From: a virus
Length of the DNA stretch: 33,202 bases
Strand: one strand, 5' to 3'
Virus record (IMG/VR): IMGVR_UViG_3300019132_000058
Location: 1 to 33,202 of that record
The notes below the pieces were generated by a model, which was given only the letters and a program-made list of their open reading frames with translations, made no database searches and had not been told where the DNA came from. A program made the position numbers and the translations under genes. This document shows positions 1,493 to 27,943 of the stretch, piece after piece. Numbering within the stretch: position 1 is the stretch's first letter; each line of letters opens with the position of its first letter.

Positions 1493-2140
1493 GTGACAGA
1501 AAAGAAATCAAAACTTCACGTTAAAATTCCTACTCCAATTGTAAGGAATGATGGAATATTTGTATCTAATAAAGATTTTGTACTATATGCTCGACTATGT
1601 TTTCAATATTTTAGAAATTATCATGAGAAAGAAATTGTAATAGATCATAAAAAACTAATGCGGAATTGTAAAATCGCAGATACTCGTACATTTAAGAAGA
1701 TGTTGAAACGGTTGTATGATAACAAATTAATCTTAAATGAAATTGAAAAATTGCCTACAAAAGGAACGTTGACGATTGTTTTTAATCCTGAGATATACAA
1801 AGATGATCATTTTACAATGTTGTCATCTGAAATTCTTACATACTTTAACAATGATCAAATTGACGAATACGCTTTTAGACTTATCTTCTATTATAAGAGC
1901 CATATAAACAAGAAGGATAAAAGAAGTGTTGATTATTGCTTTGTTGGTTACGATACGTTAATTGAACGCCTGAGGGTGTCTAAGACCAGTATCACCGAAG
2001 GAAATAAGCAATTAGATGCAGCTAAATTAGTTAAAATCGAAGCTCATAAACTCAAACACAACTACGAATATGACGAAAATGATGAGTTAGTTTTTGATCG
2101 TTTTAACAATCATTATTTCGTAGCAAATTCTCTGTTTTAG
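1493..2140 (+). CDS. Probable replication initiator (two winged-helix-like halves)
   Basis: A 215-residue basic protein. The start is GTG with GAGGAAAGGTGAT upstream. By eye it has two similar helical DNA-binding-like halves: residues ~25-90 (HTH-like KLMRNCKIADTRTFKKML) and ~115-185 (TLIERLRVSKTSITEGNKQL), each followed by a beta-rich wing. Tandem winged helices are the architecture of Rep_3/RepA-type plasmid initiators. Context supports the role: five TGCA boxes phased at ~21 bp begin 28 bp after its stop, and an AT-rich stretch follows. No relaxase or nickase motif is visible, so theta replication is the better guess. A phage transcription regulator with a replication-initiator-like N-terminus is the main alternative. 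Confidence 0.5.
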   Translation: MTEKKSKLHVKIPTPIVRNDGIFVSNKDFVLYARLCFQYFRNYHEKEIVIDHKKLMRNCKIADTRTFKKMLKRLYDNKLILNEIEKLPTKGTLTIVFNPEIYKDDHFTMLSSEILTYFNNDQIDEYAFRLIFYYKSHINKKDKRSVDYCFVGYDTLIERLRVSKTSITEGNKQLDAAKLVKIEAHKLKHNYEYDENDELVFDRFNNHYFVANSLF

Positions 2141-2155: not shown

Positions 2156-2256
2156 AGGTACTGAAAATGCAGAGATAGAAAAATTTATGCATAGATAAGG
2201 TACTGAAAATGCATAACTAGTATTTCATTTTGCAGAGTCAAAGTACAACCAATGCA
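2156..2256 (+). repeat. Iteron-like array, candidate replication origin
   Basis: Two exact 16-bp copies of AGGTACTGAAAATGCA lie at 2156-2171 and 2198-2213, and a degenerate third (AAGTACAACCAATGCA, 11 of 16 matches) at 2241-2256. The pitch is 42-43 bp, four helical turns. Between them TGCA recurs at half pitch, so TGCA starts at 2168, 2188, 2210, 2231 and 2253 (steps 20, 22, 21, 22), all on one DNA face. Placement directly after the candidate initiator and next to AT-rich DNA is that of an iteron origin. Confidence 0.55.
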
Positions 2257-2459
2257 GGCACTAGATGTACAGTATATAGAAGATAATTAAATATATAACA
2301 TACAGTTAAATATACATAGAAGATACAAGTAAAGATACAGTATTTACAAAACGCAAAAACAAGTTTTTACGCTTTGGGACGGACACAATTTTTACAGTTT
2401 TATTTTCACATTTTCTGATCGGTTAGTTATAAACAAATTTTATGTAAAGGGATGGTTAA
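2257..2459. other. AT-rich repeat region before the RNA polymerase-like gene
   Basis: This completes the gene-free stretch 2141-2459. It holds two copies of ATAGAAGATA (2276-2285, 2316-2325) and three TACAGT boxes (2268, 2301, 2336; steps 33 and 35). There is a short hairpin CGCAAAAAC/GTTTTTACG (2352-2371) and the motif GTTAGTTATAAACAAA (2422-2437), which recurs near 30407. The first ~100 bp are very AT-rich and could be the origin melting region; the last ~60 bp probably hold the promoter of the next gene. No convincing DnaA box was found. Confidence 0.4.
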
Positions 2460-5159
2460 ATGGGAAATTTAGAAAATCAAATTAGTTTATATTCATTATC
2501 TACAGATTGCTTTCTTAATAGTAAAGAAGCTAAATTCAAAAAGGAAAAGGATAAATTTTCAGATCTGAAGAGGCTGAGAAGAGCTGAGGAAAAGGTTAAA
2601 GCTAATATTGAAAGATTAGAAATTGAACTTGCTGAAACGGTTGATCAGGAACATAAAGATAAAATTAACAGTATTATCACCAAGCAACAACGAAAATTAG
2701 ATTATCTTGATTGGCTAGAAGATTATTTTAAAGGTACCAAGCATACTAAGAAAAGTTATAAAGAGGGATTGAAGTCGTTAATTGAAAAAAATGCAGTAGT
2801 TAGAACATTAGATAATAGTCATCTGCATCCTAAAAAAATTATTACACTGTTTGAATCAACTCTTACTCGTAAAATGAATCTTGAAATTGGCGAGTTAACT
2901 GAGGATTTAATCATTGTTGAGGTTTATGATTATGGGGTGTTTAAGGATTTATTAGAACAAGGATTCAAGCACAATAACCAATTGTACATCTACCTAACGT
3001 CATCTAGTGGTCAGATCCGCAACAAAAAGGCTGTTTTTATCAATAAGGACAAGTGGGAAGAAGTAGAGAACACGTTAATGTGTGGTCTTACTATTGACGA
3101 TATAAATTCTAAAGGTGGAATGTCGGTTAATAAATTTCTTAGTTACAAAGCCCTTGCTTCTTCCGCCTCAGAGCCTTGGAGAGACTTCCCTATAGACAAG
3201 ACAATTGTTGTAGATGATGTAAAGGTAAAATTATATAGAACTGTTGATTTAGTAGATAGAGAGTCTTATGAGGTAAATAGAAAGGACAATCATCCAATCG
3301 AAATAGAGATAACGGATGGTGCTGGAATGATACTTCCTGAACTATGTGAAAAGGTAACTGGTTCAAGAAATAAAAATTTTCAGTTTAGAGCACCCTTTAT
3401 GAAAGGCCTTCTTTCTCCTGTTCAGTTCAATGGATTTAATAATGGTAAATCATTGTTTGTGAAGGATTGTTATAACCAGGTGCATGACATTATAAAAGAA
3501 GGCACACAAATAATACTCTTTAAATCACAATTTAAAATGAAGAAGTATTATGATACATGGGAACAGTATCAAACTAATTTCAAAAATTACAATTGTGAAG
3601 CTTCTTTTATGAACGTTGAAGAAGATGAAATATCGAATGCTAAAACTAATTATCAATATATTCAACCACTAATTGACCTAAGTGACGAAGAGTTAGAGGG
3701 ATTAGTGGAGAGTACTAATAAAGATATCGCTAAGCTTGGTTCTGATTTAGAAACCATGCTCAAAGTGTTAGGTGTAGATGAAGAAAGTGAGAATTATAAT
3801 TATTTTCAGCAAGCACTAAGACTGTATAATCCATTACTAAATGACCCACATTCTAAACAGGCTATCAAAAAACGTAAAGAAACATTAGTTAAAGAAGCTA
3901 AAGGTGGGAAGTTGAATATAGATGGAAAATACACCTATATCCTTCCAGATTGGTATGCTGTGATGGAAAGTATTTTCTTGGATAAGGAGCCTAAAGGCTT
4001 GCTGAAAGATGGTCAAGTATATTGTAATTTGTATTCTGAAGGTAAAGTAGATTGTTTGCGTAGCCCATCGTTGTCATTTGAGCATGTTGTTCGTCAGAAT
4101 ACTAAATCAGATGAAATGAAGGATTGGTTTATTACAAAGGGAGTACATGTAAGTTGTCAAGACATGATTTCTAAAATTCTTCAGGCAGATTGGGATGGCG
4201 ACAAAATTTTAATCACACCATCAAAAATCCTAATAAATGCAGCCGAAAGGAACATTGAAAAATTAGACGTTGTTCCACTTGAGTATGAAATGGGTGTTGC
4301 ACCTGAAAAACAAATTAATCCTAAAAGTATTTATGATAGCTTGGTTTTTGCATTTAAAGGAGATATCGGAACGATAAGTAATAATATAAGCAAAATATAT
4401 AATAGTAATAATTTTGACTACGAATCAATTAAAAAATTGACTTCTTATAATAATCATGTCATTGATATGGCTAAAACTTTAGATCTTCCTAAACCTCCAC
4501 AGGATGTAAAGAAAAAATGGAATGAGTATAAATCTGAAAAGTTACCTTACTTTTTCCAATATGCCAAAAATAAATCTGAAGATAAGGTTAAGGAGAAAGA
4601 TGACATGGTAATGAATCGGATAGAAGATATGATACAAAGTCCCAGAATAACTTTCAGGAGTGTTGCTGGGAAGTTTGACTATAAGAATTTAATGAAAAGA
4701 TCATACATACCAATTACAAAGTATATTGTTGATAAAGAAACGGATGAAGAGATTATTAAACGATATATAGAACTTGATCAGAATAAATCGAAATATATAA
4801 ATAAGAGTGAGGACGATGAAAAGAAGCGTTCAAATAAGAAGAAAGTGAAGCATGTCTATAGAATGATTCGCAAGCAATTACTTGAAGTACATAACAGTCC
4901 TAATAATGTTACAGATGTCTTAGTTAGATATTTATACAACAATGTAGATAGTTCATTTAAAACAACGTTATGGGAATCATTCGGTAAAGAGATCGTTGCA
5001 AATATTAAAAGAAACGTATATAACATAATTGAATGTGTGGATTGTAAAGAAGAAGTGGAGAAGCAGACACAAAGACAGTTAAGATGTTATGGGTGTCAGG
5101 AGAAGCGTAGAAAAACATTAGATAATGCACGTAAGACTAAAAAGAAAATTTCCGCATGA
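2460..5159 (+). CDS. Single-chain RNA polymerase-like protein (YonO / two-barrel RNAP superfamily)
   Basis: An 899-residue protein; ATG start with AAAGGGATGG upstream. The key signature is ADWDGDKILI with D577, D579 and D581, matching the DxDGD metal-binding loop of the beta'-type double-psi beta-barrel in multisubunit RNA polymerases, eukaryotic RdRps (QDE-1 type) and SPbeta YonO. About 45 residues upstream, CLRSPSLSFEH (532-542) corresponds to the conserved basic R-x-P-x-L strand that precedes the loop in those families. The N-terminal ~100 residues are a charged coiled coil, and residues 859-879 form a CxxC-x13-CxxC zinc ribbon. It probably makes RNA from phage DNA: late transcripts as proposed for YonO, or primers for the adjacent origin. 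Which of the two cannot be told from sequence. A terminator follows at 5179. Confidence 0.75.
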   Translation: MGNLENQISLYSLSTDCFLNSKEAKFKKEKDKFSDLKRLRRAEEKVKANIERLEIELAETVDQEHKDKINSIITKQQRKLDYLDWLEDYFKGTKHTKKSYKEGLKSLIEKNAVVRTLDNSHLHPKKIITLFESTLTRKMNLEIGELTEDLIIVEVYDYGVFKDLLEQGFKHNNQLYIYLTSSSGQIRNKKAVFINKDKWEEVENTLMCGLTIDDINSKGGMSVNKFLSYKALASSASEPWRDFPIDKTIVVDDVKVKLYRTVDLVDRESYEVNRKDNHPIEIEITDGAGMILPELCEKVTGSRNKNFQFRAPFMKGLLSPVQFNGFNNGKSLFVKDCYNQVHDIIKEGTQIILFKSQFKMKKYYDTWEQYQTNFKNYNCEASFMNVEEDEISNAKTNYQYIQPLIDLSDEELEGLVESTNKDIAKLGSDLETMLKVLGVDEESENYNYFQQALRLYNPLLNDPHSKQAIKKRKETLVKEAKGGKLNIDGKYTYILPDWYAVMESIFLDKEPKGLLKDGQVYCNLYSEGKVDCLRSPSLSFEHVVRQNTKSDEMKDWFITKGVHVSCQDMISKILQADWDGDKILITPSKILINAAERNIEKLDVVPLEYEMGVAPEKQINPKSIYDSLVFAFKGDIGTISNNISKIYNSNNFDYESIKKLTSYNNHVIDMAKTLDLPKPPQDVKKKWNEYKSEKLPYFFQYAKNKSEDKVKEKDDMVMNRIEDMIQSPRITFRSVAGKFDYKNLMKRSYIPITKYIVDKETDEEIIKRYIELDQNKSKYINKSEDDEKKRSNKKKVKHVYRMIRKQLLEVHNSPNNVTDVLVRYLYNNVDSSFKTTLWESFGKEIVANIKRNVYNIIECVDCKEEVEKQTQRQLRCYGCQEKRRKTLDNARKTKKKISA

Positions 5160-5178: not shown

Positions 5179-5228
5179 AAATAGCCTTCAAAACCCTTTA
5201 ATACCAAGGGATGAGGGCTATTTTATAT
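5179..5228 (+). terminator. Terminator after the RNA polymerase-like gene
   Basis: AAATAGCC (5179-5186) pairs with GGCTATTT (5216-5223), enclosing a second small stem CCCTT/AAGGG, and runs into TTTATAT. It sits 20 bp after the stop of the 899-residue gene. Confidence 0.7.
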
Positions 5229-5422
5229 ATTAATAGATAATAGTCTTTAAGGGAGAACAACAATCTAATATACACGAACAATGGAAATTATTCTTCCCAC
5301 AATTTTATTTTTAATCTAAAAAAGTGTATAAAACTCCTGATTATTAATTTCCCTTATGAGCTTATCATACACTCGTTTAGATATTGTTGCAAGTATTTTT
5401 TCATTTAATCATTCTTTTTTTT

Positions 5423-5450
5423 GCATCGGCTCTTTAGTCGGTGCTTTTTT
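5423..5450 (+). terminator. Intrinsic terminator in the 5160-5626 gap
   Basis: GCATCGGC (5423-5430) pairs with GTCGGTGC (5437-5444) with two wobbles and a 6-nt loop, followed by TTTTTT. T-runs on both flanks mean it could work in both directions. The rest of 5229-5500 shows only an AGTGTAT/ATACACT inverted repeat near 5322-5371 and no convincing gene. Confidence 0.75.
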
Positions 5451-7713: not shown

Positions 7714-7718
7714 CCAAA

Positions 7719-9220: not shown

Positions 9221-9721
9221 ATGTTTGAATTCGATAAAACAAAAGAAATTGCTGAGAATCTAAATAATATTAATGACAGGTTAGAATATACAGAGTACTT
9301 ACAAGGGTTCTTAGATGAATTGATTGATGAGGTTAAACAAGAACGTGCAAAGATAAATGCTAAGAAACAGTTACCTTTCTTACGTATTGATCTAGATGAT
9401 ATCAATAGTGTTCCGGTTGTTTATTACAACGGTAAAGAGATTAAAAGTAAGATTAGAGTTAGCTTTGATTGGAAGACACGTGACCATACTGATTACAACT
9501 TACCACTTATTCGTGTTGAATATGCTGATGTAAATAAAGAATCAGGTTATTTCGGATCTAAGACTATTCAACATAATCAGCCTATTGAGAAGGGTAAGCA
9601 GTTAAGTGATTATACAACGAAGGAATTGATTGATGAGTTAGATAGTAGAGATGGTGTAGAAGTTGTAGATCTACTTGCAGATGGAAAGCTATACAAGAAG
9701 TTTGTGACTGTTGATGTGTGA
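9221..9721 (+). CDS. Unknown phage protein at the start of the packaging region
   Basis: 166 residues; ATG with GGGAGATG. Residues ~5-50 form a charged coiled-coil helix; the rest (50-166) looks like an alpha/beta domain with a repeated acidic character. No catalytic motif is recognised. Its TGA overlaps the start of the HNH gene (GTGTGATG), so the two are coupled, and it sits just before cos-terminase. It could be a late gene regulator or packaging accessory protein, but nothing in the sequence proves this. Confidence 0.6.
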   Translation: MFEFDKTKEIAENLNNINDRLEYTEYLQGFLDELIDEVKQERAKINAKKQLPFLRIDLDDINSVPVVYYNGKEIKSKIRVSFDWKTRDHTDYNLPLIRVEYADVNKESGYFGSKTIQHNQPIEKGKQLSDYTTKELIDELDSRDGVEVVDLLADGKLYKKFVTVDV

Positions 9722-10041
9722 TGAAGTACAAAGAGACAAACAGATTTTATTTAAATAAGAAATGGAAAAGTAAACGATCCAGCATCTTAAAGCGTGATGA
9801 GTACCAATGTAGAGAATGCAGAAGATATGGCAAGGTAACACCAGCTACAACAGTACATCATGTATATCCGTTTGAAAACTTTGAAGAACTTAAGTTACAT
9901 AGTGAGAACCTTATCAGTCTTTGCAATAAGTGTCACAATTCAATGCATGACAGAGTAACAAATGAATTGACTGAGAAGGGGAAACAATGGACAGAGAGAT
10001 TAAGAGAAAAAATATTTAATCCCCCCACCTTCAAAAGTTAA
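9721..10041 (+). CDS. HNH endonuclease of the cos/terminase module
   Basis: 106 residues from ATG 9721 (GTG 9718 also possible; neither has a strong site, coupling to the upstream gene is likely). The domain is a classical HNH: CRECRR (zinc CxxC), TTVHHVYP (catalytic His pair), NLISLCNKCHNSMH (Asn, second CxxC and final His). In many HK97-type Gram-positive siphophages a small HNH protein is encoded directly before the P27-type small terminase and assists cleavage of concatemers at cos. Here its 3' end merges with the cos-like C-run. Confidence 0.9.
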   Translation: MKYKETNRFYLNKKWKSKRSSILKRDEYQCRECRRYGKVTPATTVHHVYPFENFEELKLHSENLISLCNKCHNSMHDRVTNELTEKGKQWTERLREKIFNPPTFKS

Positions 10042-10100
10042 AAAATTTCAAATGGGATACCGGTGAGAGGAACTTTTTCCAATAGAGCGATTCGTCAAAA
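10018..10100 (+). other. Probable cos region
   Basis: Between the HNH gene and the small terminase lie a C-run (CCCCCCACC at 10021), an AT-rich bend, then GGGATACCGGTGAGAGGAAC (10054-10073) followed by TTTTTCC. A C-run, an ACCGGTGAG-type block and a TTTTTCC element in this location are familiar from cos phages with HNH + P27 terminases. The exact nick positions cannot be read from sequence. Confidence 0.45.
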
Positions 10101-10131
10101 ACTTTTTTTGGAGCAATTGGAGGTGAGAGCA

Positions 10132-10482
10132 TTGACGAAAATTACATCAAAAGAAACAATCAAGAGAAGAACAATTTCGGACATGAAAGAGCTAGGAATA
10201 CATAAAAAGCAATACAATCGGCTGATAGACATCTATTCAGAACTAGTTTATCAATACATTAAGATTTCATTAGAGTTTGAAGAAAATGGATATCAATATG
10301 AGGTAAGAACGGATCAGGGAGGTGCAAAAAAATCACCAATTGTTGCAACCCTAGAAACACTAAGAAAAGATATTTTAGCATACTCTGATCGTCTTTGCCT
10401 CAATCCGAAGTCCTTAGAAAGTGTTACTGCTGAAACGGAAAGTAAATCAAAATTGGCAAGTGTGCTAAGTGGTCTTAAATGA
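10132..10482 (+). CDS. terS: Terminase small subunit (P27 family)
   Basis: 116 residues from TTG 10132, chosen because GGAGGTGA (10119-10126) lies 5 nt upstream; an earlier in-frame GTG at 10063 has no site and would put cos inside the gene. The N-terminus (TKITSKETIKRRTISDMKELG) is basic, followed by a helical body and the typical P27 C-terminal segment (PIVATLETLRKDILAYSDRLCLNPKS). It binds DNA near cos and recruits the large subunit. The stop overlaps the next start (ATGA). Confidence 0.85.
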   Translation: MTKITSKETIKRRTISDMKELGIHKKQYNRLIDIYSELVYQYIKISLEFEENGYQYEVRTDQGGAKKSPIVATLETLRKDILAYSDRLCLNPKSLESVTAETESKSKLASVLSGLK

Positions 10483-12218
10483 CGAAGAAGTATGATAATT
10501 ATGATTTAGTAATAGAGTATGCTAAGAGTATTATCGAAGGACGAAAGCTCGCAAACAAAGAACAGATTCAAGGTTGCGAAAGGTTTTTTAAATACATTGA
10601 TAACCCTGATTATGATTTTAGACCTCAAGAAGCTGAATGGATAATCAAAATTATAGAGAATACCTTTGTTCATGTACAAGGGGAAATGATTGATGGCACA
10701 CCTTTAAGAGGTGAGCCTTTTTTATTAGAACCATTTCACAAGTACCAAATTTACAATATTATGGGTTTTTACCATAAAGGCACAAAAGAGCGAGTTATAA
10801 AAGAAACATTCATTTATATTCCAAGAAAAAATATTAAGACAAGTTTTGCAGCGGCATTATCTTGGGCGCTTAGTTTGTACTATAGAAATTCAGGGAGCAA
10901 GTGTTATATTGTTGCCTCTGCTTTAAAACAGTCTTTAGAAAGTTTTAATTTTATTAAATTCAATCTTGAGCAGATGGGCGAGAAACAGAATTTTAGAGTT
11001 ATTGATAACAACCAAGAGCATTCCATTTCTGGTGAAATAGGGGATGGCTCTCTATTCATTCAAGCATTGGCAGCTAATCCAGATCGACAAGATTCATTGA
11101 ACTGTAATATTGCTATTGCAGATGAACTACATGCTTATAAAACACCTAAACAATACAATATCATCAAGGAAGCTATGAAGGCTTATACCAATAAGCTAAT
11201 GATCGGAATTACAACAGCCGGAGATAACATGAATAGTTTTTGTTATCAGAGATTGCAATACTGTAAAAAGATTCTTGATGGAACAGTGAAAGATGATGCT
11301 TACTTTGTTTTCATTGCTAAAGCAGATGAAAATGAAAGTGGAGAAATTGACTACACAAACCCAATTGAACATCAAAAAGCTAATCCTGCTTATGGTGTTT
11401 CTATTCGACCAAAAGATATTATGAATGATGCTTTACAAGCCCAAAATGATCCTCAACAAAGAAAAGACTTTTTAGCTAAGTCACTAAACATCTATACATC
11501 TTCAATGAAGGCTTATTTTAACATTGACGAGTTTAAAGAATCCGATAGGGAGTATAATTGGACACTCGAAGAGTTAGCGAAGCTGCCTATTGATTGGTAT
11601 GGAGGATGCGATTTAGCGAAGTTACACGATATGTGTGCGACTGCCTTATATGGTACATACAATCACAAAGGAAAGGAAATTGATATAGCTATTACTCATG
11701 CGTTCTTTCCAATTACTGCTGCTTATAAGAAGTCAGATGAGGATAATATACCTTTATTTGGATGGCAAGATGATGGATGGCTTACTATGACTAACTCATC
11801 AATTACAGATCATCAAGAGGTTATCAAGTGGTTCAAAGACATGAGAACAAAAGGATTCAATATTAAACAAGTTGGATTTGACCGTAAGTTTGGTAGAGAA
11901 TTCTTCCTAGAGATGAAAAGAGAACGCTTCAGAATTGAAGATACTCCACAGTTGTACTACTTAAAATCAGAAGGTTTCAGAAGGATTGAAAGTAAAGTCA
12001 AAGATAAAAAGTATTACTATCTACATTCAGATGCTTATGAATATTGTGTGCAGAACGTTAAAGCAATAGAAAAAACAGATGATGCAATACAGTATGAAAA
12101 AGTTATGCCTACACAAAGAATTGACATTTTTGATGCAAGTGTATTTGCTTCTATGCAAATGTTAAAGAATTTAGCGAAAAGTGGAACTGCTTCTAAATGG
12201 TTACAAACTAATGGTTAG
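10479..12218 (+). CDS. terL: Terminase large subunit (Terminase_1 type ATPase-nuclease)
   Basis: 579 residues, the usual length. The ATPase domain shows a deviant Walker A (PRKNIKTS, 115-122) and Walker B IAIADE (211-216, with the acidic pair), then TTAGDN as coupling motif near 245-250. The C-terminal RNase H-like nuclease has GGCDLAKLHD (D378), QVGFDRKFG (D near 470) and DIFDASVF (D near 555) as metal-binding acids. It packages DNA into proheads and cuts at cos. It is coupled to the small subunit by a 4-bp overlap. Confidence 0.95.
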   Translation: MTKKYDNYDLVIEYAKSIIEGRKLANKEQIQGCERFFKYIDNPDYDFRPQEAEWIIKIIENTFVHVQGEMIDGTPLRGEPFLLEPFHKYQIYNIMGFYHKGTKERVIKETFIYIPRKNIKTSFAAALSWALSLYYRNSGSKCYIVASALKQSLESFNFIKFNLEQMGEKQNFRVIDNNQEHSISGEIGDGSLFIQALAANPDRQDSLNCNIAIADELHAYKTPKQYNIIKEAMKAYTNKLMIGITTAGDNMNSFCYQRLQYCKKILDGTVKDDAYFVFIAKADENESGEIDYTNPIEHQKANPAYGVSIRPKDIMNDALQAQNDPQQRKDFLAKSLNIYTSSMKAYFNIDEFKESDREYNWTLEELAKLPIDWYGGCDLAKLHDMCATALYGTYNHKGKEIDIAITHAFFPITAAYKKSDEDNIPLFGWQDDGWLTMTNSSITDHQEVIKWFKDMRTKGFNIKQVGFDRKFGREFFLEMKRERFRIEDTPQLYYLKSEGFRRIESKVKDKKYYYLHSDAYEYCVQNVKAIEKTDDAIQYEKVMPTQRIDIFDASVFASMQMLKNLAKSGTASKWLQTNG

Positions 12219-12232
12219 TCGGAGGTGAATAA

Positions 12233-12406
12233 ATGAAATTAATAAACTTAATAATTAATAATTTATCAGATTTATTTTTGCTTATTGGAGTCTTATTGAT
12301 TTCGATAGGCTTTTTTATTTGGTCTATAAAAATAGGTTTCATTGTATCAGGATTATTACTTGTTGGGTTAGCATTTATCACCCTTAAAGACGAGGGAGGT
12401 GATTAA
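12233..12406 (+). CDS. Small membrane protein between terminase and portal
   Basis: 57 residues; a GGAGGTG site precedes ATG 12233. Residues ~12-33 and ~36-50 form two hydrophobic segments, with a short acidic end (KDEGGD). A tiny membrane protein here is a frequent feature of HK97-type siphophages of low-GC Gram-positives (some are classed as DUF1056). Its 3' end supplies the ribosome binding site (GGGAGGTG) of the portal gene. Confidence 0.75.
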
Positions 12407-12408
12407 AA

Positions 12409-13605
12409 TTGGGCTTTCTAATTAAAAAGAGACAAACAAGAGAAGTGACTTCAAGTGCGATAGATTGGTTCCTCTCATCAACTAGTGACTCTTTAGCGAT
12501 TCAAGGATATATAAGGCTTTCAGATAATCCTGAAGTAAGAATTGCGGTAGATAAGATTGCAGATTTAGTTTCTAACATGACAATTCATTTAATGGAAAAT
12601 ACAGACAAAGGTGACAAGCGTGTAAAGAATGAGTTATCAAGGAAGATTGATGTTGAACCATTTAGATTTATGACTCGTAAGAATTGGCTTTATAAAATTG
12701 TCAGTGATCTTCTGTTGCATGGTAACGGTAACTCTGTTGTCCATATTGGCGTAGATGTAAAAACTGGACTAATTAGCGACTTAACACCTTTTCAAATGCC
12801 ACTTGTAAACTACGAAGATGTAAGTGGTGGATATCTTATTGACTACAATGGAAAAATCTATAGTCCTGAAGAAGTAATTCATTTTGTACTTAATCCTAAT
12901 CCTAACTATCCGTACAAAGGTTCTGGTTATACGGTTGTACTTAGAGATATCGTAAAGAACCTAGATCAAGCCAATAAGACTAAGAATAGTTTTATGAGTG
13001 GCAAGTATATGCCTAGTCTTATTGTGAAAGTTGATTCCAATACAGCAGAGTTATCTAGTGAGGAAGGTCGTAATGCGGTTTATAAGAAATATTTAGAATC
13101 GTCAAATGCTGGTCAACCTTGGATTATTCCTGCTGAAATGCTTGACGTACAACAGGTTAAACCATTGTCATTAACAGACATTGCTATCAATGAATCAGTT
13201 GAATTGGATAAGAAGACTGTAGCAGGGATATTAGGAATTCCTGCATTTTTTCTAGGTGTAGGTAAATTTGATAAGGCAGAGTATAACAACTTTATTAACA
13301 CTAGAATTTATTCCATCGGCCAAATCATCTCACAAACTTTAACTAGGGATTTGCTATATAGCCCTAACATGTACTTCAAATTAAATCCACGCAGTTTATA
13401 CTCGTATGATTTAAGTGAATTGGTTACAGCTGGAACTCAAATGGTTGACCGTAACTCAATGAGAAGAAATGAATTACGAAATTGGGTTGGATTAGATCCT
13501 GATGACGAGATGGAGGAACTAATAGTTTTAGAAAATTATATTCCATCTGATCAACTAGGAAACCAAAAAAAGCTGAAGGGTGGTGATGAAGACAATGACA
13601 ATTAG
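12409..13605 (+). CDS. Portal protein (HK97 family)
   Basis: 398 residues; TTG start with GGGAGGTG 10 nt upstream. The sequence follows HK97-type portals: an N-terminal segment with [12 protein letters not shown], then [12 protein letters not shown], a central [33 protein letters not shown], and the C-terminal [10 protein letters not shown] plus [12 protein letters not shown]. It forms the dodecameric ring for DNA entry and connector attachment. It overlaps the protease gene. Confidence 0.93.
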
Positions 13606-14173
13606 AGAAGATTCGCAAACAAGAAGTCTTGTATCTGATTTGAAAACTAGAGCAGAAGACAACGGAGAAAAAGTAATTGAAGGGTACTTTGCTGTTTTTA
13701 ATTCAGAAACTGAATTATGGCAAGGTGCTTATGAAGAGATTGATCCAGTTGCATTTAACAAAACTTTAGAGAATGACATTCGTGCATTAATTAATCATGA
13801 TACAGGATTGGTACTTGGCCGAAATAAATCAAATACGCTTGAATTAAAAGTTGATAGTCATGGACTTTGGGGGCGTATCATTATTAATCCTAATGATACA
13901 GATGCAGTCAATCTTTATGAACGTGTTAAGCGTGGTGATGTGGATCAGTGTAGCTTTGGATTCAATATCCTTAGTGAAGAAACAGATTTTCGTGAAGATG
14001 GCACGGTTAAATGGAGACTGAAAGAAATTGATTTACATGAAGTAAGTGTCGTAACATTTCCAGCCTATTCTGACACTGGTGTACAAGCTAGGAAGAGAGA
14101 TGTAGAGCAATATAAGAAAAGACAATTTGAACTTAGAAAGCAAAAATTAAAGGAGCGATTAGTGAATGGGTAA
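13586..14173 (+). CDS. Prohead protease (HK97/U35 family)
   Basis: 195 residues from ATG 13586 (GAAGGG upstream); GTG 13580/13583 and ATG 13595 are alternatives. The catalytic His is in ALINHDTG and the Ser in DQCSFGF, with the usual GYFAVFNS N-terminal strand and [12 protein letters not shown] near the C-terminus. It matures the capsid by removing the delta domain of the major capsid protein. It overlaps the portal (20 bp) and capsid (8 bp) genes. Confidence 0.93.
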
Positions 14174-15344
14174 TCCAGTTATTTTAGGCGCAAAGTTAAA
14201 CATGAAGCGTAGCACACTTTCAACAATTGAGGAACAATTACAAACTTTATTAGCAAAAAGAAGTGAGTTAACTGAGGCAGTTGAAGCTGTTGAAAACGAA
14301 GAGGATTTAACTGCTATTGAAGCTGATGTAGAGGCTAATGATAATGAAATTGAAACACAAGAATCAGAGAAAAGTAAACTCGAAGAAGAGATTGCTAGTC
14401 TTGAAGCACAAATTGAAGAATTGAATAATAAAAATCCAGAAAATAACAAAGGGGAAGAGAGAAAAATGAAAAAAGATAATGTAGAAATTCGTGAAGCAAT
14501 TAATGGTTATGTACGTTCAAAAGGACAAATTCGAGCTGGTTTTACTTCTGTAGATGGTGGAGCTTTAATTCCAGAAGAATTATTGAAACCACAGGAAGTA
14601 CCAGAAGATACAATTGACTTAAGTAAACTAGTGAATGTAGTAAAAGTAAATAGTGGCGGTGGTAAATATCCAGTAATTAAAAAATCCGGTAGTAAAATGG
14701 TTTCTGTAGAAGAGTTAGCAGCAAACCCAGAACTAGCAAAACCATCAATTACTGAAGTCGCTTATGATATCGAAACTTACCGTGGTTATATTCCAGTATC
14801 TCAAGAAGCAATTGAAGATGCTGATTATGATGTTACTGGTCTAATTGCTGATGAAATTTCAGATCAAGAATTAAATACTAAAAATGCAGCTATTGCAACT
14901 GTGTTAAAAACTGCGACTGCTAAAGCTGTAACTGGATTAGATGGTTTGAAAGCAGTATTCAATAAAGATATTAAGAAAGTTTATAATGCAAAAGCTATCA
15001 TTTCATCTTCTTTATACAATGTATTAGACACGATGAAAGATGCAGATGGTCGTTACTTATTACAAACAGATATTACAGTTGCTTCTGGAAAGAAACTATT
15101 TGGTAAAGAAGTAGTTGTTTTAGATGATGATATGATCGGTACTACTGCTGGTAATTTAGTTGGATTCATCGGTGATCCTAAAGCAGCAGTAACATTATTT
15201 GATCGTAAACGTGCTTCCGTAAAATGGGTTGACAATGAAGTGTATGGTCAATTACTAGCTGGATATGTTCGCTTCGATGTTGAGAAAACTGATGCAGAGG
15301 CAGGATTCTATATTACATTTACTGAAGAAACACCAGCAGCATAA
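14166..15344 (+). CDS. Major capsid protein (HK97 fold) with N-terminal delta domain
   Basis: 392 residues; ATG 14166 with AAGGAGCG. Residues ~15-90 are a glutamate-rich coiled coil, the delta or scaffold-like domain, and the HK97-fold core follows (AINGYVRSKGQIRAGFTS, then GGALIPEEL, TYRGYIPVSQEAIEDAD, GKKLFGKEVVVLDDD, and a C-terminal KRASVKWVDNEVYGQLL). The protease probably cuts around residues 90-115. An internal ATG (residue 101, base 14466) is preceded by GGGGAAGAG at good spacing, so a shorter 292-residue product without the delta domain may also be made. Confidence 0.93.
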   Translation: MGNPVILGAKLNMKRSTLSTIEEQLQTLLAKRSELTEAVEAVENEEDLTAIEADVEANDNEIETQESEKSKLEEEIASLEAQIEELNNKNPENNKGEERKMKKDNVEIREAINGYVRSKGQIRAGFTSVDGGALIPEELLKPQEVPEDTIDLSKLVNVVKVNSGGGKYPVIKKSGSKMVSVEELAANPELAKPSITEVAYDIETYRGYIPVSQEAIEDADYDVTGLIADEISDQELNTKNAAIATVLKTATAKAVTGLDGLKAVFNKDIKKVYNAKAIISSSLYNVLDTMKDADGRYLLQTDITVASGKKLFGKEVVVLDDDMIGTTAGNLVGFIGDPKAAVTLFDRKRASVKWVDNEVYGQLLAGYVRFDVEKTDAEAGFYITFTEETPAA

Positions 15345-15357
15345 GGGTTGATACATA

Positions 15358-15666
15358 ATGTATAAAGTCATTAAGTCATTTCGTGATTCAGAAGACAGTA
15401 TGCATACATACAGAATTGGTGAATCTTTCCCACGTGAAGGCTTTGAACCGTCTGATAAACGCTTAGAAGATTTATCAAGTAAAAATAATAAAGTTGGCAA
15501 GGCTCTGATTCTAAAGGTTTCAGAGCCTTTAGTTTCTTCTGAGGAAAATAAATACCCTTATCATATTGGTGGTGGATATTATAAATTGTCTAACGGTGAA
15601 AAGGTAAAGGGAAAAGCAAATGCCAATAAGGAAGAAATGAAACTTAAAGTAGGCGATAAACGATGA
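15358..15666 (+). CDS. Small phage protein after the capsid gene
   Basis: 102 residues; ATG 13 bp after the capsid stop. The first ~45 residues (VIKSFRDSEDSMHTYRIGESFP...RLEDLSSKNNKVG) match small proteins often found in this position; the second half is a lysine-rich extension that includes a Gly/Tyr-rich strand (YHIGGGYYKL). The codons for residues ~48-58 form a perfect terminator-like hairpin (15499-15529), so the extension may be a later readthrough into former intergenic DNA. Function unknown; perhaps a head or connector accessory. Confidence 0.7.
   Translation: MYKVIKSFRDSEDSMHTYRIGESFPREGFEPSDKRLEDLSSKNNKVGKALILKVSEPLVSSEENKYPYHIGGGYYKLSNGEKVKGKANANKEEMKLKVGDKR
15499..15540 (+). terminator. 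Terminator-like hairpin inside a coding region
   Basis: AAGGCTCTGA (15499-15508) and TCAGAGCCTT (15520-15529) pair perfectly over 10 bp with an 11-nt loop, followed by TAGTTTCTTCT. It lies about 155 bp downstream of the capsid gene and could dampen transcription of the head-tail genes relative to capsid. Confidence 0.55.
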
Positions 15667-15947
15667 ATGAATTTACTATTTTAGAACTTGTAAAGAGTAG
15701 ACTAGGTATTAGTACAACAATCAGAGATGAATATATAGTTCAAATTATCAAATCGGTTGTAAAAGAATTAGAAGATGAAAAAGGACTTATACTTGATAAT
15801 ACTAACTCTTATCATTTGATGTTTGTTGTTGATTATTCAACTTGGAGATATCAAAGCAGAGATAGTATGGAAGGTATGCCTAGACATCTTCAATTTCGAC
15901 TACATAATTTAATGATACATGTTGGTGGTGTTCAAAGTGACTTATGA
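15663..15947 (+). CDS. Head-tail connector protein (gp6-like)
   Basis: 94 residues, coupled to the previous gene by ATGA overlap. The opening ILELVKSRLGI...RDEYIVQIIKSVVKELEDEKGL and the closing RHLQFRLHNLMIHVGG have the helical pattern of HK97 gp6-type connectors, which form a ring beneath the portal. Position after capsid and before the joining protein fits. Confidence 0.8.
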   Translation: MNEFTILELVKSRLGISTTIRDEYIVQIIKSVVKELEDEKGLILDNTNSYHLMFVVDYSTWRYQSRDSMEGMPRHLQFRLHNLMIHVGGVQSDL

Positions 15948-16242
15948 CCATGAACTAATACTAATCAATGAATCTTATATTGAGGATAATGTTGGAAATC
16001 AAATACCTAATGAGACTAAAAGATCTGTTCTGTGCAAAGTAAAATCGATTGGAAGTAATGAGTTTTACAGTGCTGCTACTAGTGGATTAAAACCTGAAAT
16101 TGAATTTATTATTCATGGTTACGAATATAACGGTGAACCAAAAGTTGAATTTGAAGGTAAATTATACTCAGTCATACGCACCTATAAAGACAGTTTTGAA
16201 GAGATTGAATTAACGTGTCAGAGGGTGATAGGTAATGGCTAA
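15937..16242 (+). CDS. Head-tail joining protein (SPP1 gp16-like)
   Basis: 101 residues from GTG 15937, preferred because GGTGGTG lies just upstream; ATG 15919 would add six residues. It overlaps the connector gene by 11 bp. The beta-rich sequence (VLCKVKSIGSNEFYSAATSG, then EFIIHGYEYNGE, and a final SFEEIELTCQRV) has the typical look of Phage_H_T_join proteins, which close the portal channel as stopper. Confidence 0.82.
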   Translation: MTYDHELILINESYIEDNVGNQIPNETKRSVLCKVKSIGSNEFYSAATSGLKPEIEFIIHGYEYNGEPKVEFEGKLYSVIRTYKDSFEEIELTCQRVIGNG

Positions 16243-16588
16243 TATTGATATTTCCAAAGAGATTGCAAAAGCCTTATCAGAATATAAAACTGAAGTAACA
16301 GAAGGTTTAGAAGAAGCAAAAGTAACCATAGCTAAGAATACAGTTAATTATTTAAAGAAGAATAGTCCAGAAAATACAGGAGATTATGCTAAAGGTTGGG
16401 CTAAAAAGAAAGTTGGAACTGCTCAAGTAATACATAACCGTACAGACTATCAATTGACCCACCTTTTAGAAAAAGGACATGTCAATAGAGATGGCAGCCG
16501 TACAGAAGCTATTCCTCATATTAAACATGCTGAAGAGAAGGCAATTAATGAATATATTGAGGAAGTTGAGAAGGTGATTAAGGGATGA
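16235..16588 (+). CDS. Tail completion protein (HK97 gp10-like)
   Basis: 117 residues; GAGGGTGATAGG before ATG and an 8-bp overlap with the previous gene. The helical N-terminus, NSPENTGDYAKGW and YQLTHLLEKGHVNRDGSR...PHIKHAEEK are hallmark segments of HK97-gp10 family proteins that sit at the head-tail interface and are needed for tail attachment. Confidence 0.88.
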   Translation: MANIDISKEIAKALSEYKTEVTEGLEEAKVTIAKNTVNYLKKNSPENTGDYAKGWAKKKVGTAQVIHNRTDYQLTHLLEKGHVNRDGSRTEAIPHIKHAEEKAINEYIEEVEKVIKG

Positions 16589-16914
16589 CTTTAAGTGAAC
16601 TAAAAGTAATATTAAAAGCTACTGGTTATCCGGTGGCTTATTCGCATTTCAAAGTTACACCTAATAATCCTACACCAACTCCTCCTTTTATTGCTTACAT
16701 GGTTGATGGATCTTCAAATTTATTCGCTGATAATAAAGTACATAAAAAAATAAGTAATATTCGTGTTGAATTATACACGGACATTAAAAATGAAGAAGTT
16801 GAAGCCAAGCTTGAAAGTTTACTAGACGAGCATGGATTGGCTTATGAATCTGATGAAACATGGATTGAATCGCAACAGTTATTTCAGAAAATTTACGAAA
16901 TGGGGTTAATATAA
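16585..16914 (+). CDS. Tail terminator-like protein
   Basis: 109 residues, ATGA overlap upstream and directly abutting the tail tube gene. PVAYSHFKVTPNN.TPTPPFIAYM, a central NIRVELYTDIKNEEVEAKLESLLDEHG and final QKIYEMGLI are like DUF806/gp17-type tail terminators that cap the tail tube. Assigned by motif feel and gene order. Confidence 0.75.
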   Translation: MTLSELKVILKATGYPVAYSHFKVTPNNPTPTPPFIAYMVDGSSNLFADNKVHKKISNIRVELYTDIKNEEVEAKLESLLDEHGLAYESDETWIESQQLFQKIYEMGLI

Positions 16915-17481
16915 ATGGGAAACAAAGTTAATTTTGGTTTACAAGATGTGCACTATGCTACATACACAGTATTAAATGGAGTAATTACTTATGATACACC
17001 TGTTAGAATTCCAGGTGCAGTTGAAATTTCTTTAGAACCTCGTGGAGACATGGTTGAGTTCTATGCTGATAATATGCTTTATTATTCAGCACAAAATAAC
17101 CAGGGTTATGATGGTACTTTATCTATTGCTACTATTCCAGAACAATTTGCAATTGATGCACTCGGTGAAGAAAAAGATGAAACGGATATGGTTTTAACTG
17201 AAAAGACAACAGGAAGACAAAAACCATTTGCTTTACTTTTTCAATTCCAAGGCGATGTTATGAATACACGACATGTCTTATATAATTGTACTGCAAATCG
17301 TCCTACGGTTTCAGGATCAACTAAAACTGACTCTGTAGAACCGACTCCAAATGAGCTTACGTTTGTTTCTAGTCCTCGTGAAACTGATTATGCAGTTAAG
17401 ACTAAAACAACTGAAAACACACCAGCAGCGGTCTATGATGCATGGTATACAAGTGTTTATGAGAAAGCAACTACGGTATAA
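16915..17481 (+). CDS. Major tail protein (phi13-like family)
   Basis: 188 residues; the start abuts the previous stop. It has the phi13-type opening (NKVNFGLQDVHYATYT) with the tube-fold stretch PGAVEISLEPRGDMVEFYADNMLYY and the C-terminal AVYDAWYTSVYEKA. It polymerises into the non-contractile tail tube. A strong ribosome binding site is not obvious, so coupled translation is likely. Confidence 0.9.
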   Translation: MGNKVNFGLQDVHYATYTVLNGVITYDTPVRIPGAVEISLEPRGDMVEFYADNMLYYSAQNNQGYDGTLSIATIPEQFAIDALGEEKDETDMVLTEKTTGRQKPFALLFQFQGDVMNTRHVLYNCTANRPTVSGSTKTDSVEPTPNELTFVSSPRETDYAVKTKTTENTPAAVYDAWYTSVYEKATTV

Positions 17482-17493
17482 AGGGGATAAATA

Positions 17494-17859
17494 ATGGAAA
17501 AAACATTAATTATTGATGATAAAGAAGTAAGATTTAAATCTACGGCAGCTACTCCTTTAAGGTTCAAAGCTCAATTTAGAAAAGATTTCTTTGCTGAAAT
17601 TAGTAAACTCAATAAGTTGAAAAATGTTAAATTCACTGATGAAAGTGGAGAAACAGACTATGATGCATTTGCTTTAATTGATTTTGAATTATTTTATAAC
17701 GTTATTTGGTCTTTGGCTAAAACTGGTAATCCATCAATTCCAGAACCTATTACTTGGTTAGATGGTTTTGAAGAATTTCCAATTGGTGAAATTATGCCTG
17801 AACTACAAGACTTAATTGCTCATAGCATTCAAGGTAAAAAGGGAAAAAAGATAAAGTAG
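17494..17859 (+). CDS. Tail assembly chaperone, short form (gpG-like)
   Basis: 121 residues; GGGG site before ATG. An N-terminal beta segment is followed by a helical domain (RFKAQFRKDFFAEISKL; FELFYNVIWSLAKTGNP; WLDGFEEFPIGE), as in gpG-type chaperones that coat the tape measure. The lysine-rich end (GKKGKKIK) encodes the slippery heptamer A AAA AAG at 17844-17850, the site of a probable -1 frameshift into the long form. Confidence 0.88.
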   Translation: MEKTLIIDDKEVRFKSTAATPLRFKAQFRKDFFAEISKLNKLKNVKFTDESGETDYDAFALIDFELFYNVIWSLAKTGNPSIPEPITWLDGFEEFPIGEIMPELQDLIAHSIQGKKGKKIK

Positions 17860-18108: not shown

Positions 18109-20265
18109 GTGGCAAAGAGTAGTATCAAAGGGATCACTATCCAATTGGACGGTGAAACAAAAGGGTTAGATAAAGCACTATCCGGTGTTAATAAGCGTAG
18201 TAGGGATTTGCAAGGCGAATTACGTGACGTTGAAAGATTATTAAAATTTAATCCTGGAAACGTTGTGGCGCTTGAACAAAAACAAAAGTTACTTACTGAT
18301 CAAGTTGAAAACACCACAAATAAGTTAGAACAATTAAAGTCTGCTCAAGCTGAAGTTAAGAGACAGTATACTTCAGGTGAAATTGACGATGGTCAATACC
18401 GTGCTTTTAGACGTGAAATTGAATTTACTGAGGGTTCATTAAGAGATTTAAAGAAGTCTGTAGAAACTATAGATGATGGAAAAGGGATAACAAATCTTAA
18501 AAATGATCTTGGTAAAGTCAAAATAAAAGCAGATGAAGCAAAAGATGCTATCAAGAATATTGGTAGTGGATTAGGTACTGCTGGAGGTTTGGGTGCAGCG
18601 GCAGCTGGTGGACTTGTAACTGGAATGCAGGAATACAATCAAGACTTGGCTAGGCTTAAGACTAATGCTTCAACTGCTGGTCGTGATCTAGGTTTAGTTG
18701 AAGATGCGTTCATGAAAATTACTGAAGTTACAGGGGAAACTGATTCGGCAGTAGAAACCGTTTCAAACTTACTTGCAAGTGGATTTAATGATAATCAATT
18801 AGCTCAAGTTATTGATCAGGTTAACGGTGCGGCCATCAAATTTAGTGACACTTTAAAGACAGAAGGTATTGCCGATGGAATTCAGGAAACTTTTGCTACT
18901 GGAGCAGCTATCGGGCCATTTGCGGAGTTATTGGAGCGTAGTGGTATTGATTTAGATGACTTTAACGCAAAACTAGCTGATGCAAAGGAACAAGGTGATG
19001 GAGCTAATTTCATTCTGCAAACTTTGGCAGAACAGGGTTTTGGGGAAATTTCAAATAAGTACAAAGAAATGAATCCAGAAGTGCAAAAGAATGCTGAAGC
19101 AAATGCAGCTCTACAGAAAACTTTAGCTGATTTAGCAATTGTATTAACTCCTTTAATTGCTTCTGTAACTGAAATTCTAACAAAAGTAATTGAATGGGCA
19201 ACAAAGAATCCTGAGTTAACTGCAACAATAGCGGCTATCGTTTTAGGTATCGGTTCATTGGTTGGAATATTCATGGTTCTTGCTCCTATATTTACAACAC
19301 TAACTGCCTTATCAGCTGCTTTAGGAATTGGTATGTTACCACTAATTGGAATAATTGCGGGTATTGTAGTAGCCATAGGACTCCTAGTCGCAGCAGGAAT
19401 TTATCTCTATAAGAATTGGGACGAAGTAAAGGCAAAAGCTATAGAAATTTGGAATAGTTTAGGGGAATGGTTTTCAAACTTTTTCTCAACACTTTTAGAC
19501 CTGTTTAATTCAGCTTTAGACTGGATAGATGAGAAGACTAATGGAAAATTCTCAGCTGTAACCGATGCTATTCGGAAATACATGGACATGGCACTCAAGA
19601 ATATTCAGGATGTATGGACTTGGATACAAAATACCTTTCAAAATGCGATCGACTTCATTGTTGCACTAGTGACTGGTGATTTTGAGGGTATGAAAAATGC
19701 TATTCAAAATCAGATGGAAAATACAGAAGAGTTAATTAAGAATATTTGGAGTAACGTAGAAGAATTCTTTAGTGGAATTGATCTGAAGGAAGTCGGTAAG
19801 CAAATTTTACAAGGTCTCATTGACGGGATTGAAAGCCTTGCTGGTTCCCTATGGTCAAAAGCACAAGAAATTGCTGAAGGTGTAAGAGATGAATTTATTG
19901 GTTTATTTGATATCCATTCTCCTTCTAGGCTCATGAAGTGGATGGGTGAGATGGTAGGTGAAGGTTTTGTTATCGGTATCGACTCAATGGTTGATGATAT
20001 ACAAAGGGCATCTAATAATATGGCTGAAGTAGCAGTTCCATCTACACCTAAGATATCATCAAATAATAAAGATAATTCATTTACCAACAAAAAATCCGGT
20101 GGTTTAAATGAGATTCAAAGTGAACCTAATTATACCTTAATAATTGAACCTGCTCCAATTATTATTGGCGGGAAAGAAGTGGCAAAAGTTACGTTTAAGC
20201 ATACAGCAAAATTACAAAAAGAAAATGAAATAAGAATTGAAAGGTCAGAAGGTAGGTGGACTTAA
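18109..20265 (+). CDS. Tail tape measure protein
   Basis: 718 residues; GTG start with GGTGGTGAGG. The first ~150 residues are coiled coil (KGLDKALSGVNKRSRDLQGEL is a typical opening), then a Gly/Ala-rich segment ~155-175, helical repeats, and a long hydrophobic stretch ~368-434 that could insert in the host membrane. The C-terminal part has FDIHSPSRLMKWMG, the hallmark of these proteins. Using the usual ~0.15 nm per residue, tail length would be near 110 nm (inference). No peptidase or lysozyme motif was spotted. It overlaps the Dit gene by one base. Confidence 0.95.
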   Translation: MAKSSIKGITIQLDGETKGLDKALSGVNKRSRDLQGELRDVERLLKFNPGNVVALEQKQKLLTDQVENTTNKLEQLKSAQAEVKRQYTSGEIDDGQYRAFRREIEFTEGSLRDLKKSVETIDDGKGITNLKNDLGKVKIKADEAKDAIKNIGSGLGTAGGLGAAAAGGLVTGMQEYNQDLARLKTNASTAGRDLGLVEDAFMKITEVTGETDSAVETVSNLLASGFNDNQLAQVIDQVNGAAIKFSDTLKTEGIADGIQETFATGAAIGPFAELLERSGIDLDDFNAKLADAKEQGDGANFILQTLAEQGFGEISNKYKEMNPEVQKNAEANAALQKTLADLAIVLTPLIASVTEILTKVIEWATKNPELTATIAAIVLGIGSLVGIFMVLAPIFTTLTALSAALGIGMLPLIGIIAGIVVAIGLLVAAGIYLYKNWDEVKAKAIEIWNSLGEWFSNFFSTLLDLFNSALDWIDEKTNGKFSAVTDAIRKYMDMALKNIQDVWTWIQNTFQNAIDFIVALVTGDFEGMKNAIQNQMENTEELIKNIWSNVEEFFSGIDLKEVGKQILQGLIDGIESLAGSLWSKAQEIAEGVRDEFIGLFDIHSPSRLMKWMGEMVGEGFVIGIDSMVDDIQRASNNMAEVAVPSTPKISSNNKDNSFTNKKSGGLNEIQSEPNYTLIIEPAPIIIGGKEVAKVTFKHTAKLQKENEIRIERSEGRWT

Positions 20266-21776: not shown

Positions 21777-21779
21777 GGC

Positions 21780-24419: not shown

Positions 24420-24590
24420 ATGGAACAAGGTGTGTCAGTTAAAGATGCTAATAAAGTAATTGATTTTTTAACAAAGCAAAATGCAGAAATAACTAAGATT
24501 AATGCATTTCAAAATGTCATTATACAGGAACAAAATGAAGAAATAGTTGAGTTAAAGAAAGCGATTGAAGAAATTAATAAGAAAAAATAA
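24420..24590 (+). CDS. Small coiled-coil protein next to the tail fibre
   Basis: 56 residues; ATG 24420 directly follows the Tal stop. It is almost entirely helical with heptads (VIIQEQNEEIVELKKAIEEINKKK). Small proteins like this often stand between Tal and fibre genes in Bacillus phages and may be fibre or baseplate accessories. It is followed at once by a terminator. Confidence 0.65.
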   Translation: MEQGVSVKDANKVIDFLTKQNAEITKINAFQNVIIQEQNEEIVELKKAIEEINKKK

Positions 24591-24591
24591 C

Positions 24592-24611
24592 AGCCCATTA
24601 TGGGCTTTTTA
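24592..24611 (+). terminator. Terminator before the tail fibre gene
   Basis: AGCCCA (24592-24597) and TGGGCT (24601-24606) with a tri-nucleotide loop, then TTTTATATT. It is short but GC-rich, 23 bp before the fibre start. Confidence 0.7.
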
Positions 24612-24633
24612 TATTGGTGAAAGGAGGAAGAGT

Positions 24634-26520: not shown

Positions 26521-26557
26521 AGAACTATAGGAGCAAATTGCGAATTAAAAACACACA

Positions 26558-26594
26558 AAAAAGAGCATTCAGAATTAATCTGTTTGCTCTTTTT
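26558..26594. terminator. Bidirectional terminator between tail fibre and XRE gene
   Basis: AAAAAGAGCA (26558-26567) and TGCTCTTTTT (26585-26594) pair perfectly, with an inner CAGA/TCTG stem. It serves the rightward late operon and the leftward repressor, whose stop lies inside the loop. Confidence 0.85.
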
Positions 26595-26793: not shown

Positions 26794-26811
26794 TTTATCC
26801 CTCCTAAGAAG

Positions 26812-26839
26812 ATTATACACGAAATTAGTGTAATTAGTC
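26812..26839 (-). promoter_or_regulatory. Leftward promoter of the XRE repressor
   Basis: On the minus strand a consensus TATAAT (+ strand 26812-26817) is preceded at 18 bp by AGGACT, a weak -35. The -10 is overlapped by the first 19-bp operator, which suits autorepression. Confidence 0.5.
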
Positions 26840-26894: not shown

Positions 26895-26907
26895 TAAGGA
26901 GGGTAAC

Positions 26908-27921: not shown

Positions 27922-27943
27922 TTGCGTAGAAGGAGGTTGAGAA

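What the first reader, a model, noticed from the sequence alone, without database searches (positions are those of the whole stretch)
2460..5159. Single-chain RNA polymerase-like gene beside a candidate replicon
The protein carries D577-x-D579-G-D581 and an upstream RSPSL block in the arrangement of two-barrel RNA polymerases (YonO, QDE-1, beta'), plus a C-terminal zinc ribbon. It lies next to an initiator-like gene and iteron-like repeats. Phage single-chain polymerases of this type are few and poorly understood. A copy near an origin raises the question whether it transcribes late genes or primes replication. The motif is seen in the sequence, the superfamily is known, and the role is inference.
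Basis: partly seen in the sequence, partly recalled or inferred. Interest (0 to 1): 0.8.

Follow-up and report, generated by a model that had tools for sequence, protein, structure and literature searches.

The report
Compact phage with YonO-type RNA polymerase
A small (about 33 kb) Bacillus-type phage carries its own one-piece RNA polymerase of the rare YonO kind next to a replication origin, and just behind the gene lies a previously unnoticed DNA/RNA element, shared by dozens of otherwise unrelated phages, that is a good candidate for the still unknown start site this polymerase reads.

Summary
ORF 2460-5159 (899 aa) is a true YonO-type polymerase: phrog_8308 E=9e-223, 42% identity to SPbeta YonO, 52% to its nearest relative. 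The model (pLDDT 91.7) matches only RDR2/QDE-1 two-barrel polymerases among confident PDB hits. K315, K359, R534, P536, D577/D579/D581 and four zinc cysteines are invariant in 53 relatives. The neighbour is a candidate iteron replicon: five cores 20-22 nt apart, shared with three phages carrying a homologous initiator-like gene.

(1) YonO was characterised in 134-kb SPbeta. Here it serves a ~33-kb phage with GBSV1-like head genes (terminase 72%) and no activator of GBSV1's type found. Compact YonO phages use at least three further head modules. (2) A conserved cis element (5179-5298; core GATAATcGTCtTTAAGGGA) follows yonO. With leave-one-cluster-out training it is the top hit of the whole locus in 35/60 loci (chance ~0.65% each). 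In SPbeta GATAATNGTC occurs twice: behind yonO, and directly at the only mapped YonO start. It is a candidate YonO promoter/leader.

Polymerase identity is near certain; late-gene transcription probable; the promoter reading is a testable inference. Priming of replication could not be tested.

The parts
1493..2140 (+). Rep-like winged-helix initiator candidate (215 aa)
   Evidence: 54-61% identical homologues directly upstream of yonO in L097, L100, L050; weak hits Phage_rep_O E=0.007, phrog_270 replication initiation E=0.001; HTH_36 E=2e-4 for the L097 homologue
2156..2265 (+). iteron array: five cores ATGCAGAGRTAG-like, spacing 20, 22, 21, 22 nt
   Evidence: direct repeat D3; same spacing in L097 (33, 54, 76, 98) and L050, partly in L100
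2266..2345 (.). AT-rich stretch with GTATATAGAAG...ATACAGTATTTA blocks conserved in four phages (candidate unwinding element)
   Evidence: alignment; unwinding role is inference
2460..5159 (+). yonO homologue, single-chain two-barrel RNA polymerase, 899 aa; basic residues K315, K359; RSP 534-536; DxDGD 577-581; zinc ribbon C859/862/876/879
5179..5223 (+). hairpin AAATAGCCTTCA...TGAGGGCTATTT enclosing the conserved palindrome (5191-5212, AAACCCTTTAATACCAAGGGAT); may end the yonO mRNA and/or be part of the promoter
   Evidence: motif LL 243 vs 61-68 in shuffles; inverted repeats with differing but complementary arms in relatives
5236..5257 (+). core block GATAATAGTCTTTAAGGGAGAA: candidate YonO start-site element
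   Evidence: 27.3 bits, next best in the 33-kb window 15.8, window not in training; LL 315 vs 73-92 in shuffles
5264..5274 (+). second block TCTAATATACA (consensus GCTAATRTACA)
   Evidence: 19 of 36 loci match at >=9/11 vs 0.4 expected from shuffles; held-out test in SPbeta 22.3 bits vs 7.7 next
5291..5298 (+). 3' arm TTCTTCCC pairing with GGGAGAA 5251-5257
   Evidence: arm distance 42-50 nt in most loci; stem extension beyond the anchor exceeds arm swapping (2 of 2000 swaps), second measure weaker (47 of 2000)
5423..5444 (+). intrinsic-terminator-like hairpin downstream of the element; further ones at 7716, 7839, 8084, 8837, 9166, 12280
   Evidence: 8 found vs 4.1 expected in shuffles
9718..17859 (+). 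HNH, terminase, portal, protease, capsid and connector genes, GBSV1-like; presumed target of the polymerase
   Evidence: 39-73% identity to GBSV1/EauS-123 for most genes, capsid only 28%; transcription by YonO is inference
18109..29092 (+). tape measure, tail, lysis genes (with a short minus-strand HTH gene 26575-26871 and an integrase inside)

Best explanation
The gene encodes a YonO-family DNA-dependent RNA polymerase that is made early by the host polymerase and then transcribes this phage's late genes as a long unit from a phage-specific start just behind its own gene. The start is marked by the conserved element at 5179-5298: a palindromic hairpin, then GATAATnGTC...AAGGGA, with RNA beginning at or next to the GATAAT block. 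Shown here: family, fold, active site, element conservation, and coincidence of the core with the published SPbeta start. Inferred: catalytic activity of this protein, which genes it transcribes, that the element is its promoter, and the exact start base. The rep-iteron-yonO-element block appears to be a portable unit placed ahead of unrelated head modules.
For: Orthology, fold and invariant catalytic residues. SPbeta YonO is a proven DNA-dependent RNAP whose loss silences 37 late genes; its promoter was unknown (PMC5467207). The element is found behind yonO in phages whose polymerases are 37-52% identical to the window's. It follows the late side rather than the stop codon: L069 and L017 have it ~780 nt further on. 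GBSV1 and EauS-123, which lack yonO, score only 11.6 and 11.2 bits. GATAATNGTC occurs twice in 134-kb SPbeta; one copy is at 60445-60454, and the published start converts to record base 60455, the adjacent base. TerL lies roughly 4-9 kb downstream on the same strand in compact phages of several head types. GBSV1's activator (phrog_248) has no counterpart among the window ORFs scanned.
Against: The second SPbeta site matches only the first half of the core and scores 9.4 bits in the full matrix, 8th in a 20-kb locus; its match to the start was noticed after the coordinate was known (by composition about 6e-6 per position, so ~7e-5 for a window of 11). If the start is at GATAAT, most of the conserved block is transcribed, unusual for a promoter. 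BUCT082, with a very divergent polymerase, keeps the SPbeta second site almost unchanged, so that site may be kept as part of a non-coding RNA. 25 of 60 loci do not have the element as the top hit. Not all small ORFs were scanned for activators.
Confidence: 0.58

Rival explanations
1. The protein is the late polymerase, but the conserved element is a structured RNA (leader, stability or antitermination-like element of late or yonO transcripts), and the true promoter lies elsewhere.
For: GGGA...TCCC stem with extended complementary arms and near-fixed spacing; conserved loop block GCTAATRTACA; upstream hairpin resembles the terminator of yonO in several phages; the SPbeta second copy starts a 1.6-kb non-coding region.
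Against: The strongest conservation includes the unpaired GATAATnGTC block, which in SPbeta abuts a mapped 5' end enriched as triphosphate and confirmed by primer extension (PMC5467207). No Rfam family matches the element. Stem evidence is modest.
Confidence: 0.3
2. The polymerase makes primers for phage replication at the adjacent iteron origin instead of, or besides, late mRNA.
For: Conserved adjacency of rep, iterons and yonO in at least four compact phages; no primase or helicase hit among the window ORFs searched.
Against: SPbeta YonO loss silences late genes specifically (PMC5467207); the rep homologue is not adjacent to yonO in the SPbeta-like loci; the host primosome can serve iteron replicons (general knowledge).
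Confidence: 0.06
3. An accessory gene without a role in this phage's late transcription (degenerate, or serving host takeover or defence).
For: No expression data for this phage.
Against: Intact 899-aa frame and all catalytic residues invariant; conserved position between origin and late genes in unrelated phages.
Confidence: 0.06

Closest known systems
YonO of Bacillus phage SPbeta (PMC5467207; NC_001884 61356-63875)
   Same: Same family over nearly full length, catalytic triad, zinc ribbon, place ahead of late genes, shared downstream element
   Different: 42% identity; the window phage is ~33 kb with a GBSV1-like head instead of 134 kb; adjacent rep-iteron origin; no HU gene between yonO and the late genes
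L012 (IMGVR_UViG_2814123076_000002, 37,030 bases)
   Same: Nearest polymerase (52%), same compact architecture, same element
   Different: Head genes only 22-31% identical; no detectable homologue of the window Rep
QDE-1 / plant RDR2 (PDB 7w82, 7rqs, 7y7t)
   Same: Two-barrel single-chain fold
   Different: 11-14% identity; eukaryotic RNA-silencing polymerases
Geobacillus phage GBSV1 (NC_008376)
   Same: Terminase 72%, portal 58%, protease 71%; gene order of the head module; FtsK-like and replication-initiation genes behind lysis
   Different: No yonO; has a phrog_248 transcriptional activator and RecE/RecT/DnaD/DnaC replication genes
Phage N4 virion RNA polymerase promoters (general knowledge; literature located, not read)
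   Same: Hairpin followed by a start site is a formal parallel
   Different: Unrelated T7-type polymerase; no evidence that YonO reads a DNA hairpin

Membership tests
YonO-type single-chain two-barrel RNA polymerase | full-length sequence homology to YonO | tested here: met
YonO-type single-chain two-barrel RNA polymerase | two-barrel RdRP/RNAP fold | tested here: met
   model pLDDT 91.7, pTM 0.84; top 20 PDB hits all RDR2/QDE-1, best E=5e-19; 26/53 relatives hit PF05183. Barrels were inferred from the fold match, not measured separately
YonO-type single-chain two-barrel RNA polymerase | DxDGD triad and basic residues of the first barrel | tested here: met
   D577/579/581, K315, K359 invariant in 53; distances in the model not measured
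YonO-type single-chain two-barrel RNA polymerase | DNA-dependent RNA synthesis | not testable with these tools
   shown only for SPbeta YonO (PMC5467207)
YonO-type single-chain two-barrel RNA polymerase | transcribes the phage late operon | not testable with these tools
   position and element consistent
T7-type single-subunit RNA polymerase | T7 RNAP domain or fold | tested here: not met
   no Pfam/PHROG/PDB match of that type
Iteron replicon | three or more direct repeats about two helical turns apart near a rep gene | tested here: met
Iteron replicon | Rep of a known initiator family | tested here: inconclusive
   weak hits only
Iteron replicon | autonomous replication | not testable with these tools
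   needs a plasmid test

The most novel reading that the evidence does not exclude
YonO polymerases start at a dedicated, sigma-independent promoter made of a hairpin plus GATAATnGTC...AAGGGA, and polymerase plus promoter travel between phages as a late-transcription cassette that can stand in for sigma-like late activators; this would be the first promoter described for a single-chain two-barrel RNA polymerase.
Probability: 0.42. Interest if true: 0.82.

Novelty: new variant of a known kind. Interest (0 to 1): 0.66.

Why it matters
YonO is a minimal single-chain relative of cellular RNA polymerases that transcribes DNA, and the 2017 paper left open what promoter it reads and whether it needs a factor. 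The conserved element gives a defined sequence, a predicted start in SPbeta (about 2,225,208 on the 168 map) and dozens of natural variants to test. The compact phage also suggests that a one-protein late-transcription system can sit in front of unrelated head modules, which makes it a small, tractable model.

Tried and rejected
SPBRE repeats as YonO promoter: rejected, they are MrpR operators (PMC10516654). CATTATGAGGG at window 5470 resembling the SPbeta second site: beyond the window the near-TSS pattern recurred only in SPbeta-like loci, so treated as chance. Window repeat pair 6638/7682 as promoter: two copies only. Sigma-A promoter reading of GATAAT: no conserved upstream -35 sequence. 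Element as yonO 3' end signal only: weakened by L069 and L017. Element as ribosome-binding site: no conserved start codon follows. Held-out block-2 matrix does not find the SPbeta second site, so only the first half-block links that site to the element. Attempt to confirm the 168/SP1 map offset in a B. subtilis genome failed, no genome searched carried the region. Sequence search of PDB gave no YonO structure.

Full report
What is there. The window is one 33,202-base IMG/VR virus record. ORF 2460-5159 encodes 899 aa and matches phrog_8308 end to end (E=9e-223). tblastn against phage records gives YonO of SPbeta and its relatives at ~42% identity over 91-93% of the protein, then Psychrobacillus phage Perkons at 38%. 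YonO of SPbeta is an experimentally characterised DNA-dependent RNA polymerase, essential for plaques, whose deletion silences 37 late genes (PMC5467207). So the family is known, and this is a new, fairly distant member.

Fold and active site. A 53-row alignment built only from the window and fetched loci gave an AlphaFold model with mean pLDDT 91.7 and pTM 0.84. Foldseek against the PDB returned 20 confident hits, all RDR2 or QDE-1, best 7w82 at E=5e-19. Twenty-six of 53 relatives match Pfam RdRP PF05183 on their own at E<=0.1, best 5.5e-17. D577, D579, G580, D581, R534, P536, E541, H542, K315, G316, K359 and C859/C862/C876/C879 are invariant.

The phage. It is not SPbeta-like. The head module is that of Geobacillus phage GBSV1 (terminase 72%, portal 58%, protease 71%) and Exiguobacterium phage EauS-123. 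The early half differs from GBSV1: no RecE/RecT/DnaD/DnaC homologue was detected by blastp, and the activator of GBSV1 (gp11, phrog_248, E=3e-41) has no counterpart among the window ORFs scanned. YonO standing in for that activator is inference.

The replicon. The gene upstream (1493-2140) has 54-61% identical homologues directly upstream of yonO in L097, L100 and L050. The gap between the two genes holds five ATGCAGAG-like cores spaced 20, 22, 21 and 22 nt, with the same spacing in L097 and L050 and partly in L100, followed by conserved AT-rich blocks. This is the anatomy of an iteron origin. The initiator's family hits are weak, so 'candidate' is the right word.

The element behind yonO. Motif discovery on the stretch downstream of yonO in 60 cluster representatives gave one strong motif, usually 40-150 nt past the stop codon. 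Restricted to 300 nt it has log-likelihood 315 against 73-92 for six dinucleotide-preserving shuffles. With matrices trained after excluding every phage with at least 60% polymerase identity, the best hit of the entire locus, both strands, lies 20-260 nt behind yonO in 35 of 60 loci, against about 0.65% expected per locus; the placement of the training sites behind yonO was itself part of the discovery step, so the test is of recurrence in held-out phages. In the window it is 5236-5257 at 27.3 bits; the next best in 33 kb is 15.8. In L069 and L017 it stands about 780 nt from yonO, so it is not tied to the stop codon. Two phages without yonO show only background. A second block, GCTAATRTACA, follows after a few nucleotides (19 of 36 loci at 9/11 or better, 0.4 expected), and a matrix trained without SPbeta relatives finds it in SPbeta at 22.3 bits with the next hit at 7.7. 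Upstream lies a conserved palindrome AAACCCTTGATATACAAGGGTTT (log-likelihood 243 against 61-68). GGGA pairs with a TCCC at near-constant distance; covariation beyond the anchor is modest: 2 of 2000 arm swaps reach the contiguous-run value, 47 of 2000 the pair count.

Link to a mapped start. Forrest et al. mapped the YonO start at 168 position 2,225,998. Two mutations listed for SPbeta c2 (yopR G407A at 2,204,767, yokI G145A at 2,277,281; PMC10516654) fall on NC_001884 bases 81,686 and 9,172 and both give the same conversion (sum 2,286,453). The start is then record base 60,455. GATAATNGTC occurs exactly twice in the 134-kb genome, at 61235-61244 (behind yonO) and 60445-60454 (adjacent to the start), both on the late strand. 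From composition I would expect about 1.7 matches in the genome, so the count is unremarkable; the position is not. The caveats: the map numbers come from strain SP1, assumed equal to 168 here; the match was noticed with the coordinate in hand; and the second site departs from the full motif. Its upstream hairpin shows a compensatory change between SPbeta and SPbetaL1.

Spread. One IMG/VR scan gave 209 relatives. In the tree the window groups with L012, L052, L099, L100 and L106 (SH-aLRT 97), and L007, L096, L097 form a second compact group. Compact YonO phages carry at least four head types: GBSV1-like (window), that of L012, that of L096/G065, and the B. velezensis prophage type (L007, G043, G071, G095, G106), with terminase roughly 4-9 kb downstream on the same strand. 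In the papers held I found no description of a YonO promoter.

Verdict. Polymerase identity about 0.97; late transcription in this phage about 0.8; element as promoter or start region about 0.58, as an RNA element about 0.3.

Noticed in passing
window 5318-5347; L097 about 1269-1298 (minus strand): AAAAAAGTGTATAAAACTCCTGATTATTAA is almost identical (28/30) in the window and L097 behind the element, although the polymerases are under 50% identical; not looked for elsewhere.
   Followed up: no
window 8892-8905 and 29112-29125: LexA-box-like sites GGAACGTTTGTTTG and TGAACGTATGTTCG; the first, with CTTCCAAGGAACGTTTGTTT, recurs ahead of the late genes in the G095 prophage.
   Followed up: no
L003 11970-13652: About 1.6 kb of apparently non-coding sequence between yonN and yonK of SPbeta, 95% identical in BUCT082 whose polymerase is very divergent; holds a DUF3800-VIII RNA match.
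   Followed up: partly
L009 3260-6034, L011 5827-8598: BUCT082 and a B. velezensis plasmid carry a very divergent YonO-like protein (about 24%) flanked by two unknown genes, in an otherwise SPbeta-like setting; in BUCT082 the palindrome AAACCCTTGATACATAAGGGTTT is still present before the HU gene.
   Followed up: partly
G489, G500, G320 and others (loci L120-L128): The C-terminal ~50 residues of YonO (profile 796-848, zinc ribbon) match short frames in genomes without a YonO hit.
   Followed up: no
window 30662-32926: FtsK-like, replication-relaxation and TrbC/VirB2-pilin-like genes in a row behind the lysis genes; a similar FtsK/replication-initiation pair in GBSV1.
   Followed up: no
window 6732-7604: NYN-domain (PIN-like ribonuclease) gene between yonO and the head genes.
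   Followed up: no
window 12280-12310: Terminator-like hairpin between terminase and portal, where GBSV1 has a gap of only a few bases; a polymerase insensitive to such signals would be needed for a single late transcript.
   Followed up: no
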